Assembly (NCBI RefSeq): GCF_003399445.1
Contig: NZ_QUQO01000001.1
Location: forward strand, 744,001 to 808,000
Source: Parvularcula marina
GTDB taxonomy: Bacteria; Pseudomonadota; Alphaproteobacteria; Caulobacterales; Parvularculaceae
Length of the DNA stretch: 64,000 nucleotides
Reading direction: 5' to 3'
Shown one piece after another: positions 33,574 through 39,668 of this stretch. The translations under genes and the position numbers were made by a program. The first letter of the stretch is position 1. Every line of letters begins with the position of its first letter. The notes beneath the pieces were generated by a model. That model was given only the letters and a program-made list of their open reading frames with translations, was not told where the DNA came from and ran no database searches.

Positions 33574-36500
33574 TCAGTGCAGCACCACCTTGGCGACCCC
33601 ATCAATGGTCTTGAGCGCCCCGCGAGTCGACGGCGTGGCCGCAATCTTGATGTCAGCGGCAAGCTCCACTTCGCAGCCGGTTTCAGCCGCCGGCAGGATC
33701 AGGATCAGATCGCCCTTGGGCCCATCGACCGAAGAGAGCCCTTCAAGCTGGCGGCGGATCTCCGGCAGGGCCTCTGGCTTCTGGACCGTGACCCTGAGGC
33801 ACTCCCCGCCCTGCTGGCGTGAGAGGTCATCGAGATTCTTGATCTTCTCAGCCGTCATCCGAAGCGAGCCTTCATTCTCTTCTGCGGTGACGGAAAGGAA
33901 AATCCGCGTGCCGGGCTGGAGAAGGTCTTCGGAAGCTTCGAGGACTTCCGAGAAGGCGGTGACTTCATAATCCCCGCTGCGGTCGGAGATGCCGATCCAG
34001 CCAAAGGGCTTGCCGGATTTTGACCGGCGGCGGGTCACCTCGCGGACGACACCCGCCATGCAGATGATCTTGCGCTCGCCTTCGGAGACTTGTCCCCCCA
34101 CCTTATCAGCAGAGATGACATTGGCGGTTTTGAGCGCCTCCTCATAATCATCGAGCGGGTGGCCGGAGAGATAAAAGCCGAGTGCGGTGCGCTCCTCTTC
34201 CAGCCGCTGTGGACCAGACCAGGGAGCTGCGGACCGCATTTCGGGCCGCGCAAGCGTGGTCTCGGCGGGACCACCAAAGAGCCCGCCCTGCGCACTTGTT
34301 CGCTCATCAGCCGCCGCCGCCGAATAGCGCAGCAGGAATTCGGCATTGGCAAGCACGCTCGCCCGGTCGGGATGAATGTCATCGAACGCCCCTGCCCGCG
34401 CGAGCTGCTCAATCGCGCGCTTGCCAAGCTGGCGCGCATCAATGCGTTCGAAGAAATCGTGGATGTCCTTGAACGGCCCGTTTCGCCTACGCTCCGCCGC
34501 AATCAGTTCCATCGCCTCGCCGCCGACATTCTTGATGGCGGCCAGCGCATAACGGATGGTCTGGCCCGAGGTCGCAAAATCAGCCGCAGACTGATTGACG
34601 CAAGGCGGCGCGACTTCAACGCCGAACCGGCGCGCATCGGAGACGAAGACGGACAGCTTGTCGGTGAGCGCCTTATCGAGCGACATCGACCCGGCAAAGA
34701 ACTCGGCCGGATGGTTCGCCTTGAGATAGGCTGTCTGGTAGCTGACCCAAGCATAGGCGGCGGCGTGCGATTTGTTGAAGCCGTAGCCGGCGAATTTCGC
34801 GACCAGCTCGAAAATCCCGTCGGCCTTCTTCAGGTCGACATTCTTCTCCTTGGCGCCGTCGAGGAAACGGATCTTCTGCTTATCCATCTCCTCCTTTTTC
34901 TTCTTACCCATGGCGCGGCGCAGAAGGTCGGCTTCGCCGAGCGAGTAGCCCGCAAGGATCTGGGCAATCTGCATCACCTGTTCCTGATAGATGATGACGC
35001 CGTAGGTTTCTTTGAGCACATCCTCGAGCAGCGGGTGCAGGTAGTCTGGTTTCTCCCGCCCCGCTTTCCGGTCGATATAGGTCGGGATGTTGTCCATCGG
35101 ACCCGGCCGGTAGAGCGACACAAGCGCGATGATGTCCTCAAGACAGTCCGCCTGCAGACCTTTGAGTGTCGCGCGCATGCCCGCCGATTCAAGCTGGAAC
35201 ACGCCGATCGCATCGCCGCGCTCGAGCATCTTGTAGGTTCGCTCGTCTTTGAGCGAGACCCGATTGATATCAAGATCGGTGCCCGCGACTTTGAGATAAT
35301 CAAGCGCGCGCTGGATGACAGTGAGGGTCTTGAGGCCAAGGAAGTCGAATTTGACGAGACCCGCGGGCTCCACCCATTTCATGTTGAACTGGGTGGCAGG
35401 CATGGGTGAGCGCGGATCACGGTAGAGTGCGACAATCTCATGCAATGGCCGGTCGCCGATCACGACGCCCGCGGCATGGGTTGAGGCGTGCCGGTAGAGC
35501 CCTTCGAGTTTTAGCGCCGTATTGAGGAGCGTGTCGACCATGGAGTCGTTTTCGCGCTCCTCGCGGAAACGCGGCTCTCCCCGGATCGCTTCTTCGAGCG
35601 TACACGGATTGGCGGGGTTGTTAGGCACCATTTTGCAGAGCCGGTCGACCTGCCCGAACGGCATCTGAAGGACACGGCCGACATCGCGCAGAACGGCCCG
35701 CGCCTGCAGCTTACCGAAGGTGATGATCTGGGCCACACGGTCATGACCATAGCGGTCCTGCACATAGGCGATCACTTCGTCCCGCCGGTCCTGACAGAAG
35801 TCGATATCGAAGTCGGGCATCGAGACCCGTTCGGGGTTCAGGAACCGTTCGAAGAGCAGGTTGAAGCGAAGCGGATCGAGATCGGTGATGGTCAGGGCGT
35901 AAGCCACGAGCGAGCCTGCGCCCGAGCCCCGGCCCGGGCCGACCGGAATGCCGTGCGATTTCGACCACTGGATGAAGTCGGCCACGATCAGGAAGTAGCC
36001 GGGGAAGCCCATCTTGTTGATGATCCCCAGCTCAATTTCGAGCCGCTCCCAATATTCGCTTTCGGGCTTTGCCAGCTCAATCTCGGCGAGCCGTTCGCGC
36101 AAACCATCCTCCGCCATCTGACGAAGGGCTGCCTTCTCGCCCTCGAGATCGCCAGCAAAGCTCGGCAGGATCGGCGGGTGCATGGTCGGACGGAAGGCGC
36201 AGCGCTGGGCAATCTCGATGGTCGCCTCGATCGCCTCGGGCAGATCAGGGAAGAGCGCCGCCATCTCATCGCCCGACTTGAAATAATGATCCTCCGAGAC
36301 CTGACGGCGGTCAGTCTCGGAAATATAGCGCCCGCCCGCGATACAGAGGAGCGCGTCATGGGCGTCATGATCGCCGCGCGCGGGGAAGTAGGGATTATTT
36401 GTCGCCACCAGTGGCAGGCCGAGCCGGTAGGCCTCCGCCGCGAGCCAGGCTTCGGACGAATAGCGCCCGCCCCTGTCGGTCACGTCAGACGAAGGGTGGC

Positions 36501-37029
36501 GTTGCAGCTCCACATAAAGCCGTGAGGGGAAGGCACTTGCCAGCCGGGCCAGAAGACTTGCGGCCTCGCTTGCGTGATCCTCCGCATGAAGACGGTCAAC
36601 CGGCCCCTCCGGCCCGCCGGTCAGGCAGATCAGCCCTTCGGTATTCTCAATCAGCGCCTCGACCGAGATCGACACCTCGTCCTGCGCCGCCGGGTTGAGA
36701 AAGGCCCGCGACCCCAGATCCATCAGGCGCTTATACCCCGCCTCATTCTGGGCGAGCAGGACGACGGAGGCGAGCTGGCCAAAGCGGGTCCGCGCCGGGC
36801 TCTCCAGATCGGTGACGATTTTCAGCTCGATCCCGGTAATCGGCTGGACCCCGCCACCACGGAACACCTCCGCCGCTTCGAGCGCGCCATAGAGGTTGTT
36901 CGTGTCGGTGACGGCCAGCGCCGGCATCTGATGCGCCTGACAGAGCTTTGCCATGGCGGAGAGGTGGATCGCCCCCTCGGCCAGTGAATAGGCGGAATGG
37001 GCGTGCAGATGGACGAAGGGCGCAGTCAT
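33574..37029 (-). CDS. dnaE: DNA polymerase III alpha subunit (DnaE1)
   Basis: 1151 residues from the ATG at 37029 (MTAPFVHLHAHSAYSLAEGA), preferred over the ATG two codons earlier because AAGG sits 8 bases before it. The N-terminal PHP domain begins HLHAHSAYS. The polymerase palm carries GPGRGSGAGSLVAYAL and the catalytic acids PDFDIDFCQDRR. The tandem helix-hairpin-helix and OB parts are in the last third. It is the replicative polymerase. The SOS-type promoter region and a 30-residue peptide gene lie directly upstream in the same direction. Confidence 0.98.
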   Translation of the reverse strand: MTAPFVHLHAHSAYSLAEGAIHLSAMAKLCQAHQMPALAVTDTNNLYGALEAAEVFRGGGVQPITGIELKIVTDLESPARTRFGQLASVVLLAQNEAGYKRLMDLGSRAFLNPAAQDEVSISVEALIENTEGLICLTGGPEGPVDRLHAEDHASEAASLLARLASAFPSRLYVELQRHPSSDVTDRGGRYSSEAWLAAEAYRLGLPLVATNNPYFPARGDHDAHDALLCIAGGRYISETDRRQVSEDHYFKSGDEMAALFPDLPEAIEATIEIAQRCAFRPTMHPPILPSFAGDLEGEKAALRQMAEDGLRERLAEIELAKPESEYWERLEIELGIINKMGFPGYFLIVADFIQWSKSHGIPVGPGRGSGAGSLVAYALTITDLDPLRFNLLFERFLNPERVSMPDFDIDFCQDRRDEVIAYVQDRYGHDRVAQIITFGKLQARAVLRDVGRVLQMPFGQVDRLCKMVPNNPANPCTLEEAIRGEPRFREERENDSMVDTLLNTALKLEGLYRHASTHAAGVVIGDRPLHEIVALYRDPRSPMPATQFNMKWVEPAGLVKFDFLGLKTLTVIQRALDYLKVAGTDLDINRVSLKDERTYKMLERGDAIGVFQLESAGMRATLKGLQADCLEDIIALVSLYRPGPMDNIPTYIDRKAGREKPDYLHPLLEDVLKETYGVIIYQEQVMQIAQILAGYSLGEADLLRRAMGKKKKEEMDKQKIRFLDGAKEKNVDLKKADGIFELVAKFAGYGFNKSHAAAYAWVSYQTAYLKANHPAEFFAGSMSLDKALTDKLSVFVSDARRFGVEVAPPCVNQSAADFATSGQTIRYALAAIKNVGGEAMELIAAERRRNGPFKDIHDFFERIDARQLGKRAIEQLARAGAFDDIHPDRASVLANAEFLLRYSAAAADERTSAQGGLFGGPAETTLARPEMRSAAPWSGPQRLEEERTALGFYLSGHPLDDYEEALKTANVISADKVGGQVSEGERKIICMAGVVREVTRRRSKSGKPFGWIGISDRSGDYEVTAFSEVLEASEDLLQPGTRIFLSVTAEENEGSLRMTAEKIKNLDDLSRQQGGECLRVTVQKPEALPEIRRQLEGLSSVDGPKGDLILILPAAETGCEVELAADIKIAATPSTRGALKTIDGVAKVVLH

Positions 37030-37094
37030 AAGCATTACCTTAGGTCAGCTTGGCCCCCGTCCGGGCCTAAGAATTATCCCCAAACGGGGACGGA

Positions 37095-37187
37095 TCAGCC
37101 GCCGAGCTGGCTCGCGGCCAAGATGAGGCCAAGCAGCACGGCGAGGCCGGAAATGTCCTGAAGAAGTGTCTGTTTTGCGGTTTGCAT
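37095..37187 (-). CDS. 30-residue SOS-controlled membrane peptide (SidA-like candidate)
   Basis: A 30-codon ORF. GAGGG lies 9 bases before its ATG. It begins MQTAKQTLLQDISG and then has a hydrophobic run LAVLLGLILAAS ending in QLGG, so it should be a single-pass inner membrane peptide with a short polar N-terminus. A candidate promoter TTGACC-17 bases-TAGGAA lies just upstream, and a perfect GTTC-N7-GTTC SOS box overlaps its -10 region. Known family context: Caulobacter SidA is a 29-residue, SOS-induced inner membrane inhibitor of division acting on FtsW/FtsN. Homology to SidA is not shown here; the similarity is in size, topology and control. It could instead be a leader for dnaE 65 bases downstream. 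Confidence 0.6.
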   Translation of the reverse strand: MQTAKQTLLQDISGLAVLLGLILAASQLGG

Positions 37188-37206
37188 GACGAGCGACCCT
37201 CTATAT

Positions 37207-37221
37207 GTTCGATAAATGTTC
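37207..37221. promoter_or_regulatory. SOS (LexA) box 1
   Basis: GTTC-GATAAAT-GTTC, a perfect match to the alphaproteobacterial LexA direct repeat GTTC-N7-GTTC. It overlaps the putative -10 (37219-37224) of the minus-strand promoter for the 30-residue peptide, where a bound repressor would block transcription. Confidence 0.8.
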
Positions 37222-37247
37222 CTATCCCATTTACCGAAGAAGGTCAA
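37219..37247 (-). promoter_or_regulatory. Candidate promoter of the 30-residue peptide gene
   Basis: On the minus strand, TTGACC (37242-37247), a 17-base spacer and TAGGAA (37219-37224). The start point would fall near 37212, giving a leader of about 25 bases. The two SOS boxes flank it. Inferred from sequence only. Confidence 0.45.
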
Positions 37248-37252
37248 TAGAT

Positions 37253-37267
37253 GTTCCAAATTTGTTC
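37253..37267. promoter_or_regulatory. SOS (LexA) box 2
   Basis: GTTC-CAAATTT-GTTC, a second perfect GTTC-N7-GTTC repeat, 46 bases from the first and 74 bases before the helicase start. It probably represses uvrD on the plus strand and may also act on the divergent peptide promoter. Two perfect 8-base matches at this spacing in 61 bases are very unlikely by chance. Confidence 0.8.
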
Positions 37268-37340
37268 TCATCCCCTTACCCCAGCCGCCTCACCCACTCG
37301 TCACTGGCGGGCGGGCCCGACGCAGCGCTAAGAGAAGGTC

Positions 37341-39668
37341 ATGACACCCCCCTCGCTTTCCGAGCGGGCCCGCGCCGGGCTCGCCGCCACCGACATGGAT
37401 GATCCGCCCTATCTGGCGCCGCTGAACCCGCCGCAGCGCGAGGCCGTGCTGACGACCGAAGGGCCGGTTCTGATGCTGGCCGGCGCCGGCACGGGCAAGA
37501 CCCGCGCACTGACCACCCGTCTCGCCCACCTGATCGCGACCGGGCGCGCAGGTCCCGGCGACATCCTCGCTGTGACCTTCACCAACAAGGCGGCGCGCGA
37601 GATGAAGGAGCGCATCGGCGAGCTGATCGGCGAAGCGGTCGAGGGGATGCGCTGGCTCGGCACGTTCCACTCGATCGGCGCGCAGATCCTCCGTATCCAT
37701 GCAGAAATTGTCGGGCTGAAATCCTCCTTCACCATCATCGACACGGATGACCAGATCCGGCTGTGCAAGCAGGTGATCGCCGCCGAGGGGCTCGATGAAA
37801 AACGCTGGACCGGCAGAGGGTTTGCGGGGCTGCTCGATGACTGGAAGAACCGCGGGCTGACCCCCGGCGAGGTGCCCGCCGATGAGGCGCATAAATTCGG
37901 CGACGGGCGGGCGATCAAGCTCTACCGCGCCTATCAGGAGCGGCTGATTTCTCTCAATGCCGCCGATTTCGGTGACCTCCTCGTCCATAACCTGACGATC
38001 TTCCGCAAGGCGCCGGATGTGCTGGCGCGCTATCACCGGCGGTTCCGCTATATTCTGGTTGACGAATATCAGGACACGAACATTGCGCAATATCTGTGGC
38101 TGCGGCTGCTGGCGCGCGATGCGGAGGGCAAGAGCGGCGGGAATATCTGTGTCGTCGGCGATGACGACCAGTCGATCTATGGCTGGCGCGGCGCGGAGGT
38201 TGCGAACATTCTGCGGTTCGAGAAGGATTTTCCCGGCGCGAAAGTGATCCGGCTGGAGCAGAATTACCGCTCGACGCCGTCGATCCTCGCCGCCGCTTCG
38301 GCGATCATCGATCATAATTCGAACCGGCTGGGCAAAACCTTGTGGACGGATGTGCCCGACGGCCCAAAGGTCAAGCTGCGCGGGGTCTGGGACGCCGATG
38401 AGGAAGCCCGTCAGGTGACGGACGATATCGAGGCGGAGCAGACCAAGGGACGCAGGCTTTCCGACATGGCGGTGCTGGTCCGCGCGTCCTTCCAGATGCG
38501 GTCATTCGAGGAACGGTTCAACACGGCGGGCATCCCCTACCGCGTCGTTGGCGGTCCACGATTCTATGAGCGGGAGGAGACGCGCGACGCGCTCGCTTAC
38601 CTGCGGCTGGTCAGGAACCCGGATGATGATCTCAGCTTTACACGGATCATCAACAAGCCGCGCCGGGGCTTCGGGGACAAGGCGGTCCAGACGCTCAATA
38701 TCGCCGCGCGGGAAATGCGGGTCAGCCTGACCGAAGCGGGCCGGCGCCTGCTTGAGACCGATGAAATGCGCGGCAAGGCGAGAACCAGTCTTGCGCGCTT
38801 CCTTGAACAGCTTCGCCAGTGGCAGGCCATGGCCGAGACGACCCCACCGAGTGAGCTGTCAGAGACCGTGCTCGAAGAGTCGGGGTATACGGATTTCTGG
38901 CGCAACCAGAAAACGATCCAGAGCGCAGGCAAGCTTGAGAACCTCAAGGAACTGACCCGCGCGGCGGGTGAGTTCGATACGCTTGAGGGTTATCTCGATC
39001 ATGTCAGCCTAGTTGCCGAACGCCCTGCGGAAAGCAGCGACGGCGAGGTCTGGTTGATGACCCTTCATGCGGCGAAGGGGCTTGAATATCCGGTCGTCTT
39101 CCTGCCCGGCTGGGAGGAGGAAATCTTCCCCTCCGGTCGCTCGGTGAATGAGAACGGGCAGGACGGGCTCGAGGAGGAACGGCGGCTCGCTTATGTCGGG
39201 ATCACCCGCGCGCGGGAGGATTGCCGGATCAGCTTTGCGGCCAACCGGCAGGTTTATGGCCGCTGGCAATCCGCCCTGCCCTCGCGCTTTATCGACGAGC
39301 TGCCCGAGGAGCATGTCGAGGTGATGTCCGAACCCGGACTATATGGCGTGAAGGCAAAGGAAATGCCGGCCTATTCGCGCTTTGATCAAGTGGCGGCAAG
39401 CGATGGCGGCTATGACACGCCGGGCTGGAAACGCGCGCGCAGCTCCCGCCCGCGCAATCCGGCGCCCGCGATTGACGGCTCATCCCGGCTGATTGCAAGT
39501 TCTGTCGGCGGGACCAGCCCCTTCAAGACGGGCGAGCGCGTCTTTCACCAGAAATTCGGTTATGGCGAGGTCAAGGGCGCGGATGGCAACAAGCTCGATG
39601 TCGCCTTTGAGAAAGCCGGGCAGAAGAAAGTGATCGCCAGCTTCCTGATCGCAGCGGACGAGGTTTAG
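37341..39668 (+). CDS. uvrD: UvrD/PcrA-type superfamily 1 DNA helicase
   Basis: 775 residues. All helicase motifs are present: Walker A LAGAGTGKT, motif Ia VTFTNKAAREMKERI, motif II VDEYQDTN, motif III VGDDDQSIYGWRGA, motif IV LEQNYRST, motif V TLHAAKGLEYPVVFLP, motif VI YVGITRARE. The C-terminal GERVFHQKFGYGEVKGADGN is the tudor-like UvrD/PcrA tail that contacts RNA polymerase. It acts in nucleotide excision and mismatch repair by 3'-5' unwinding. An SOS box upstream implies DNA-damage induction, as for uvrD elsewhere. Confidence 0.95.
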   Translation: MTPPSLSERARAGLAATDMDDPPYLAPLNPPQREAVLTTEGPVLMLAGAGTGKTRALTTRLAHLIATGRAGPGDILAVTFTNKAAREMKERIGELIGEAVEGMRWLGTFHSIGAQILRIHAEIVGLKSSFTIIDTDDQIRLCKQVIAAEGLDEKRWTGRGFAGLLDDWKNRGLTPGEVPADEAHKFGDGRAIKLYRAYQERLISLNAADFGDLLVHNLTIFRKAPDVLARYHRRFRYILVDEYQDTNIAQYLWLRLLARDAEGKSGGNICVVGDDDQSIYGWRGAEVANILRFEKDFPGAKVIRLEQNYRSTPSILAAASAIIDHNSNRLGKTLWTDVPDGPKVKLRGVWDADEEARQVTDDIEAEQTKGRRLSDMAVLVRASFQMRSFEERFNTAGIPYRVVGGPRFYEREETRDALAYLRLVRNPDDDLSFTRIINKPRRGFGDKAVQTLNIAAREMRVSLTEAGRRLLETDEMRGKARTSLARFLEQLRQWQAMAETTPPSELSETVLEESGYTDFWRNQKTIQSAGKLENLKELTRAAGEFDTLEGYLDHVSLVAERPAESSDGEVWLMTLHAAKGLEYPVVFLPGWEEEIFPSGRSVNENGQDGLEEERRLAYVGITRAREDCRISFAANRQVYGRWQSALPSRFIDELPEEHVEVMSEPGLYGVKAKEMPAYSRFDQVAASDGGYDTPGWKRARSSRPRNPAPAIDGSSRLIASSVGGTSPFKTGERVFHQKFGYGEVKGADGNKLDVAFEKAGQKKVIASFLIAADEV

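What the first reader, a model, noticed from the sequence alone, without database searches (positions are those of the whole stretch)
37095..37341. SOS-controlled 30-residue membrane peptide between dnaE and uvrD
A divergent region of about 150 bases has two perfect GTTC-N7-GTTC repeats (37207-37221 and 37253-37267), the known LexA target in alphaproteobacteria. One overlaps the -10 of a candidate minus-strand promoter (TTGACC-17-TAGGAA) that reads into a 30-codon ORF with GAGGG at proper spacing and one hydrophobic segment (LAVLLGLILAAS). Caulobacter SidA is a 29-residue SOS-induced inner-membrane division inhibitor, and DidA is a second such protein. The peptide here fits that picture in size, membrane topology and control, and genome annotation normally misses such a gene. 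That it blocks division is inference.
Basis: partly seen in the sequence, partly recalled or inferred. Interest (0 to 1): 0.8.

Follow-up and report, generated by a model that had tools for sequence, protein, structure and literature searches.

The report
SOS-controlled SidA-like peptide before dnaE
A 30-residue membrane peptide gene, probably switched by the DNA-damage repressor, sits just before the replicative polymerase gene, where Caulobacter keeps its damage-induced division blocker SidA, and similar peptides sit in that place in many relatives, so it is probably part of a widespread, little-annotated brake on cell division.

Summary
In detail: a 30-codon ORF (37095-37187, minus) with a ribosome site, and two exact GTTC-N7-GTTC boxes between dnaE and uvrD. 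It is a real gene. In the window's family (with Aquisalinus and Parvularcula), 53 of the 60 genomes listed carry the peptide. In 34 of 34 genomes with both mapped it lies 16-281 bases before the dnaE match, same strand. In 26 of the 30 best loci a perfect box starts 30-54 bases before the ATG. Codon positions vary as in coding DNA. dnaE is the conserved partner; uvrD is near only within the genus. Caulobacter SidA (NF033228) itself lies directly before dnaE in 20 of 20 loci checked, and peptides of like size lie there in two further families of the order. Profile comparison links this family to those intermediates, and these to SidA, beyond permutation controls; the direct comparison with SidA is not significant. 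Best reading: a divergent SidA-type, LexA-controlled division inhibitor. The division block is inferred. The curated SidA model does not detect it. New variant of a known kind.

The parts
37095..37187 (-). 30-codon SidA-like membrane peptide gene (stop codon 37095-37097)
   Evidence: peptide profile matches 53 of the 60 family genomes listed; coding signature in another genus of the family
37197..37201 (-). GAGGG ribosome-binding site, 9 bases from the ATG
   Evidence: read; purine-rich stretches at a like distance in many relatives
37207..37221 (+). LexA box GTTCGATAAATGTTC (GAAC-N7-GAAC on the peptide strand); 19 bases lie between it and the ATG
   Evidence: perfect boxes at this place in 26 of the 30 best related loci
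37253..37267 (+). second LexA box GTTCCAAATTTGTTC, 73 bases from the uvrD ATG; may serve uvrD as well
   Evidence: uvrD has its own box in 10 of 15 family members outside the genus whose uvrD loci were read
37219..37224 (-). candidate -10 TAGGAA, overlapping the first box
   Evidence: read; not found by the consensus scan
37242..37247 (-). candidate -35 TTGACC, 17 bases from the -10
   Evidence: read; not found by the consensus scan
33574..37029 (-). dnaE, DNA polymerase III alpha (start at 37029 or 37035); conserved downstream neighbour of the peptide
   Evidence: NF004226 1420.9 bits, cut-off 1002; 34 of 34 genomes
37341..39668 (+). UvrD/PcrA-type helicase, divergent neighbour, near the peptide only in the genus
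   Evidence: pcrA E 2.3e-234, 780 bits under its cut-off of 911.2; uvrD E 1.5e-200, also under its cut-off

Best explanation
The ORF is a functional gene for a single-pass inner-membrane peptide of the SidA type. LexA bound to the box over its promoter keeps it silent. DNA damage activates RecA, LexA cleaves itself, the peptide is made, inserts in the inner membrane and holds the FtsW/FtsI/FtsN septal wall machinery inactive until damage is repaired, so cells grow as filaments instead of dividing over a damaged chromosome. Shown here: the gene, its conservation, the boxes, the place before dnaE, and a stepwise profile link to SidA. Inferred: LexA binding, induction, membrane insertion, the FtsW target and the division block.
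For: Conservation across the family, with invariant Asp and Gly in 24 aligned sequences. Codon-position mismatch 0.153/0.068/0.327, and 1639 synonymous against 1102 non-synonymous pairwise codon differences, over 21 distinct DNA sequences of another genus of the family. Perfect box before the ATG in 26 of the 30 best loci. In the own genome the same motif lies before lexA, recA, uvrA, a Y-family polymerase, rmuC and yifB (7 of 15 hand-picked sites assigned, the seventh a radical SAM gene). Same position before dnaE as SidA: 20 of 20 best SidA loci, 34 of 34 family genomes. Intermediates: 30 of the 30 best loci before dnaE, 29 of 30 with a box. Profile-profile: this family to intermediates E 7e-7, intermediates to SidA E 1e-6, 0 of 150 column permutations in each of two modes; repeated with sets by family (f1-f5 E 4.5e-6, f3-f5 E 1.8e-7, 0 of 100 each). 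A profile built without this family gives 4 matches in it at E <= 0.05, of which 2 are the dnaE peptide (G046 E 0.006, G052 E 0.036). SidA: 29 residues, inner membrane, acts on FtsW (PMC4211646, passages). FtsW/RodA-type proteins are present.
Against: The direct profile comparison of this family with SidA is not significant (E 0.096; 24 and 35 of 150 permutations reach the score; 33 of 100). NF033228 does not hit the window peptide and passes its cut-off in no genome of this family. The family profile against single sequences is weak: the best intermediate is in the top 0.4% of short hydrophobic ORFs, many are far lower. The intermediates' profile misses the window's own genome and 2 of its 4 hits in the family are chance places. 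SidA's FVWM core is absent. No functional data exist for this family; the local promoter is weak. The best FtsW match is under the curated cut-off (314.6 against 337.5 bits).
Confidence: 0.76

Rival explanations
1. A TisB- or DinQ-like SOS peptide that depolarises the membrane and promotes dormancy rather than acting on the divisome.
For: Same size class and SOS control; DinQ is a SOS-regulated toxic single-span peptide (PMC3567139, start of abstract in the listing; TisB is recalled).
Against: The box starts 30-54 bases before the ATG in 26 of 30 loci, which leaves no room for the long leader of tisB (recalled); no Rfam match in 36900-37450; location and stepwise profile link point to SidA.
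Confidence: 0.1
2. A leader peptide whose translation controls dnaE in cis; the SOS box makes dnaE damage-inducible.
For: 16-281 bases before the dnaE match on the same strand in 34 of 34 genomes; no terminator-like site found in 36950-37400; some other small ORFs of Caulobacter appear to be leader peptides (PMC4117421, passage).
Against: The amino-acid sequence and hydrophobic segment are conserved; SidA at the same place acts when expressed from plasmids (PMC4211646, passages); the gap length varies widely.
Confidence: 0.1
3. Convergence: an unrelated SOS membrane peptide that arose at the same locus.
For: Direct comparison with SidA is not significant.
Against: Intermediates at the same locus link both ends with the same kind of box and like length.
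Confidence: 0.12
4. A chance ORF between two LexA-regulated genes.
For: The box pattern as such is near chance in number.
Against: Conservation, coding signature and fixed position.
Confidence: 0.02

Closest known systems
Caulobacter SidA (NCBIfam NF033228; sidA = CCNA_02004 in a passage of PMC10769358)
   Same: About 30 residues, one hydrophobic span, [R/K/Q]-[D/E] just before the span, LexA-type box before it (13 of 20 loci with a perfect one), gene directly before dnaE.
   Different: NF033228 does not hit the window peptide; no FVWM core; Gly in place of Ala three residues after the acidic one; similarity is significant only through intermediates.
Caulobacter DidA
   Same: Small membrane inhibitor acting on FtsW/I/N (PMC4211646, passages).
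   Different: SOS-independent, driven by DriD; binds FtsN. Its sequence was not compared here.
E. coli TisB / DinQ
   Same: Short SOS-induced membrane peptides.
   Different: Controlled by antisense RNAs (DinQ: PMC3567139, abstract start in a listing; TisB recalled); no Rfam match at the window locus.
YneA (Bacillus), SosA (Staphylococcus)
   Same: SOS-induced division inhibitors; YneA also acts on FtsW (PMC13396833, title and abstract start in the listing).
   Different: Other phylum; functional parallel only, not compared by sequence.

Membership tests
SidA (NF033228 equivalog) | score above the curated cut-off of 35 bits | tested here: not met
   no hit for the window peptide; none of the 33 genomes over the cut-off is of the window's family
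SidA-like, wider sense | gene directly upstream of dnaE on the same strand | tested here: met
SidA-like, wider sense | GTTC-N7-GTTC box before the gene | tested here: met
   motif for Caulobacter in Table 1 of PMC9578287 (passage)
SidA-like, wider sense | about 25-40 residues with a single hydrophobic span | tested here: met
   (by reading; no topology tool was used)
SidA-like, wider sense | sequence homology to SidA | tested here: inconclusive
   indirect chain significant; direct comparison not
SidA | blocks division through FtsW when induced by damage | not testable with these tools
   needs bench work
TisB/IstR type | antisense RNA antitoxin and long structured leader | tested here: inconclusive
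   no Rfam match in 36900-37450; short box-to-ATG distance; feature recalled

The most novel reading that the evidence does not exclude
The box-peptide-dnaE order is an ancestral alphaproteobacterial checkpoint module in which one LexA switch both halts septation and raises (or resets) the replicative polymerase alpha subunit, the peptide and dnaE being co-transcribed; Caulobacter SidA is only its best-known branch.
Probability: 0.3. Interest if true: 0.78.

Novelty: new variant of a known kind. Interest (0 to 1): 0.62.

Why it matters
In the passages I saw, SidA is described as a Caulobacter division inhibitor, and its curated model passes its cut-off in one family only of the order sampled here (33 of 299 genomes). 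If the peptides before dnaE do the same job, SOS division control in a large part of the order, and in scattered other Alphaproteobacteria, runs through one old locus that protein models barely cover. It would give a set of diverse natural FtsW ligands to test, and pose the question why a division brake stays tied to the replicative polymerase gene.

Tried and rejected
Box enrichment as evidence by itself was dropped: counts are near chance in window and genome. Direct homology to SidA was tested and is not significant. Ranking single sequences with the family profile is weak: rank-sum p 1.4e-10 for 107 ORFs near dnaE against 3265 others, but the near set holds chance ORFs and related sequences, so I give it little weight. 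uvrD as functional partner was rejected: adjacency only in the genus. Five weak hits of the family profile in other families lie inside frames of 190-666 aa and were taken as chance. No Pfam match for the five peptides tried; no Rfam match. Literature: in the listings I saw no title or abstract start on SidA relatives before dnaE outside Caulobacter; I opened passages of PMC4211646, PMC10769358, PMC1839093, PMC13384398, PMC9578287 and PMC4117421 only. The original SidA paper is not held, so I cannot say what it states on conservation. No structure prediction was run.

Full report
What is there. The minus-strand ORF 37187-37095 encodes MQTAKQTLLQDISGLAVLLGLILAASQLGG. GAGGG lies 9 bases from its ATG, and two exact GTTC-N7-GTTC boxes lie at 37207-37221 and 37253-37267. 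It is flanked by dnaE on the same strand and by a divergent UvrD/PcrA-type helicase gene. The proposed TTGACC-17-TAGGAA exists but is a poor sigma-70 match.

Is it chance? By number alone the boxes could be: 4 in the window against 1.6 expected, and 69 in the genome against 64 for the reversed pattern. Conservation decides. The genome lies in the family that holds Aquisalinus flavus (L009) and a Parvularcula MAG (L011): dnaE hits through these loci have the same coordinates as G049 and G007, and G007 is in the window's genus. Of 30 dnaE loci of the family, 26 gave a like ORF before dnaE by script and 27 a perfect box within 900 bases; the other 4 genomes were matched by the profile. A profile of 24 such peptides (A1; one Asp and one Gly invariant) found the peptide in 53 of the 60 genomes of this family listed, in a sample of 299 genomes of the order. 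Of the 7 without it, 3 (G016, G017, G041) also lacked the dnaE start, so their locus is probably not assembled; the other 4 were not checked. In 34 of 34 genomes with both mapped, the peptide lies on the dnaE strand 16-281 bases before the dnaE match. In 26 of the 30 best loci a perfect box starts 30-54 bases before the ATG, against about 0.005 expected per 250 bases. Among 21 distinct DNA sequences of another genus of the family (g2), mismatch by codon position is 0.153/0.068/0.327, as in coding DNA. In many of the 27 promoters printed a second, degenerate box (GAAC-N7-GAAT) precedes a TATAGA-like -10.

Is the box the LexA target in this genome? I chose 15 of the 69 genome sites by eye, mainly for AT-rich spacers. 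Next to 7 of them lie lexA, recA, yifB and a PA0069-type radical SAM gene, all over their NCBIfam cut-offs, and uvrA (cut by the stretch end), a Y-family polymerase and rmuC, under the cut-offs but with E of 5e-41 or better. The other 8 sites were not assigned. For uvrA and the Y-family gene the box overlaps the start of the longest ORF. The Caulobacter motif is the same (PMC9578287, Table 1 passage).

Relation to SidA. In Caulobacter sp. HMWF025 the ORF before dnaE (L216) scores 70.2 bits with NF033228, cell division inhibitor SidA, cut-off 35. NF033228 passes its cut-off in 33 of 299 genomes of the order, all in one family, f3. In the 14 control genomes it rings in E. coli, B. subtilis and Caulobacter vibrioides and passes the cut-off in one, which the output does not name; I take it to be C. 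vibrioides. f3 seems to include HMWF025, as contig number and position agree between (G299, G217). All 20 of the best SidA loci lie just before dnaE, 13 of 20 with a perfect box in reach. So SidA and the window peptide occupy the same locus. Two more families carry peptides there: in 20 loci of other families (of 24 available), f3 6 of 6, f5 6 of 6, f4 3 of 4, f2 0 of 4. With a profile of 14 intermediates (A2) 82 of 299 genomes match at E 0.05, some by chance; the best 30 loci all lie before dnaE, 29 with a box. Beyond the order, 12 of 385 genomes of the class match at E 0.01; 5 of these 12 lie before dnaE, 4 of the 5 with a box. In 30 genomes behind named loci, 13 gave such an ORF within 420 bases before dnaE; in 4 of the 30 the script did not find the dnaE start. 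Two Stappia and a Pseudovibrio have it; three Rhodobacteraceae, two readable Ponticaulis and one Henriciella do not.

Homology. hhalign links this family to the intermediates (E 7e-7) and the intermediates to SidA (E 1e-6). Permuting columns, also within hydrophobic and other columns apart, never reached these scores (0 of 150 each). With sets by family: f1-f5 4.5e-6, f1-f4 1.7e-5, f3-f5 1.8e-7 and f4-f5 4e-7 (0 of 100 each), f3-f4 0.0023 (2 of 100). The direct comparison f1-f3 (SidA) failed (E 0.11, 33 of 100). A2 gave 4 matches at E 0.05 in this family: 2 are the dnaE peptide (E 0.006 and 0.036), 2 lie in longer frames elsewhere, and the window's genome gave none. The A1 profile against single sequences is weak. 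I conclude probable common descent, not proven.

Mechanism. SidA is a 29-residue inner-membrane protein that stops division at FtsW, within the FtsW/FtsI/FtsN group (PMC4211646, passages). With the same kind of control, size, place and a likely common origin, the window peptide most likely does the same. FtsW/RodA-type proteins exist in the genome (best 314.6 bits, under the cut-off of 337.5). LexA binding, damage induction, membrane insertion and the target were not tested.

Verdict.

Noticed in passing
uvrD loci L095-L098, L100, L102, L103, L107, L108, L111: In 10 of the 15 family members outside the genus whose uvrD loci were read, the identical box GTTCCAGAATCGTTC lies before uvrD, so uvrD is probably SOS-controlled on its own there.
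   Followed up: partly
L149-L178, about 100 bases before the ATG (27 of 30 printed): In many promoters a double operator: GAAC-N7-GAAT, then a TATAGA-like -10, then GAAC-N7-GAAC, as if LexA bound both in the promoter spacer and at the start site.
   Followed up: no
L191, L193, L194, L196 (f2); L221-L223, L227 (Henriciella, Ponticaulis, Hyphomonadaceae): No such peptide found before dnaE; these lineages may have lost it or use another SOS division inhibitor.
   Followed up: no
L282, L286, L288, L289: Candidate SidA-like peptides with boxes before dnaE in alphaproteobacterial families outside the order.
   Followed up: partly
L076 (QDFQ01000001.1): Record titled Arthrobacter sp. TPD3018 holds a uvrD match of the same length, range and identity as that of Sphingomonas aquatilis (L073), so the record is probably mislabelled.
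   Followed up: no
L296 1532-2641: A PA0069-family radical SAM gene starts 17 bases behind a perfect SOS box, a possible regulon member.
   Followed up: no
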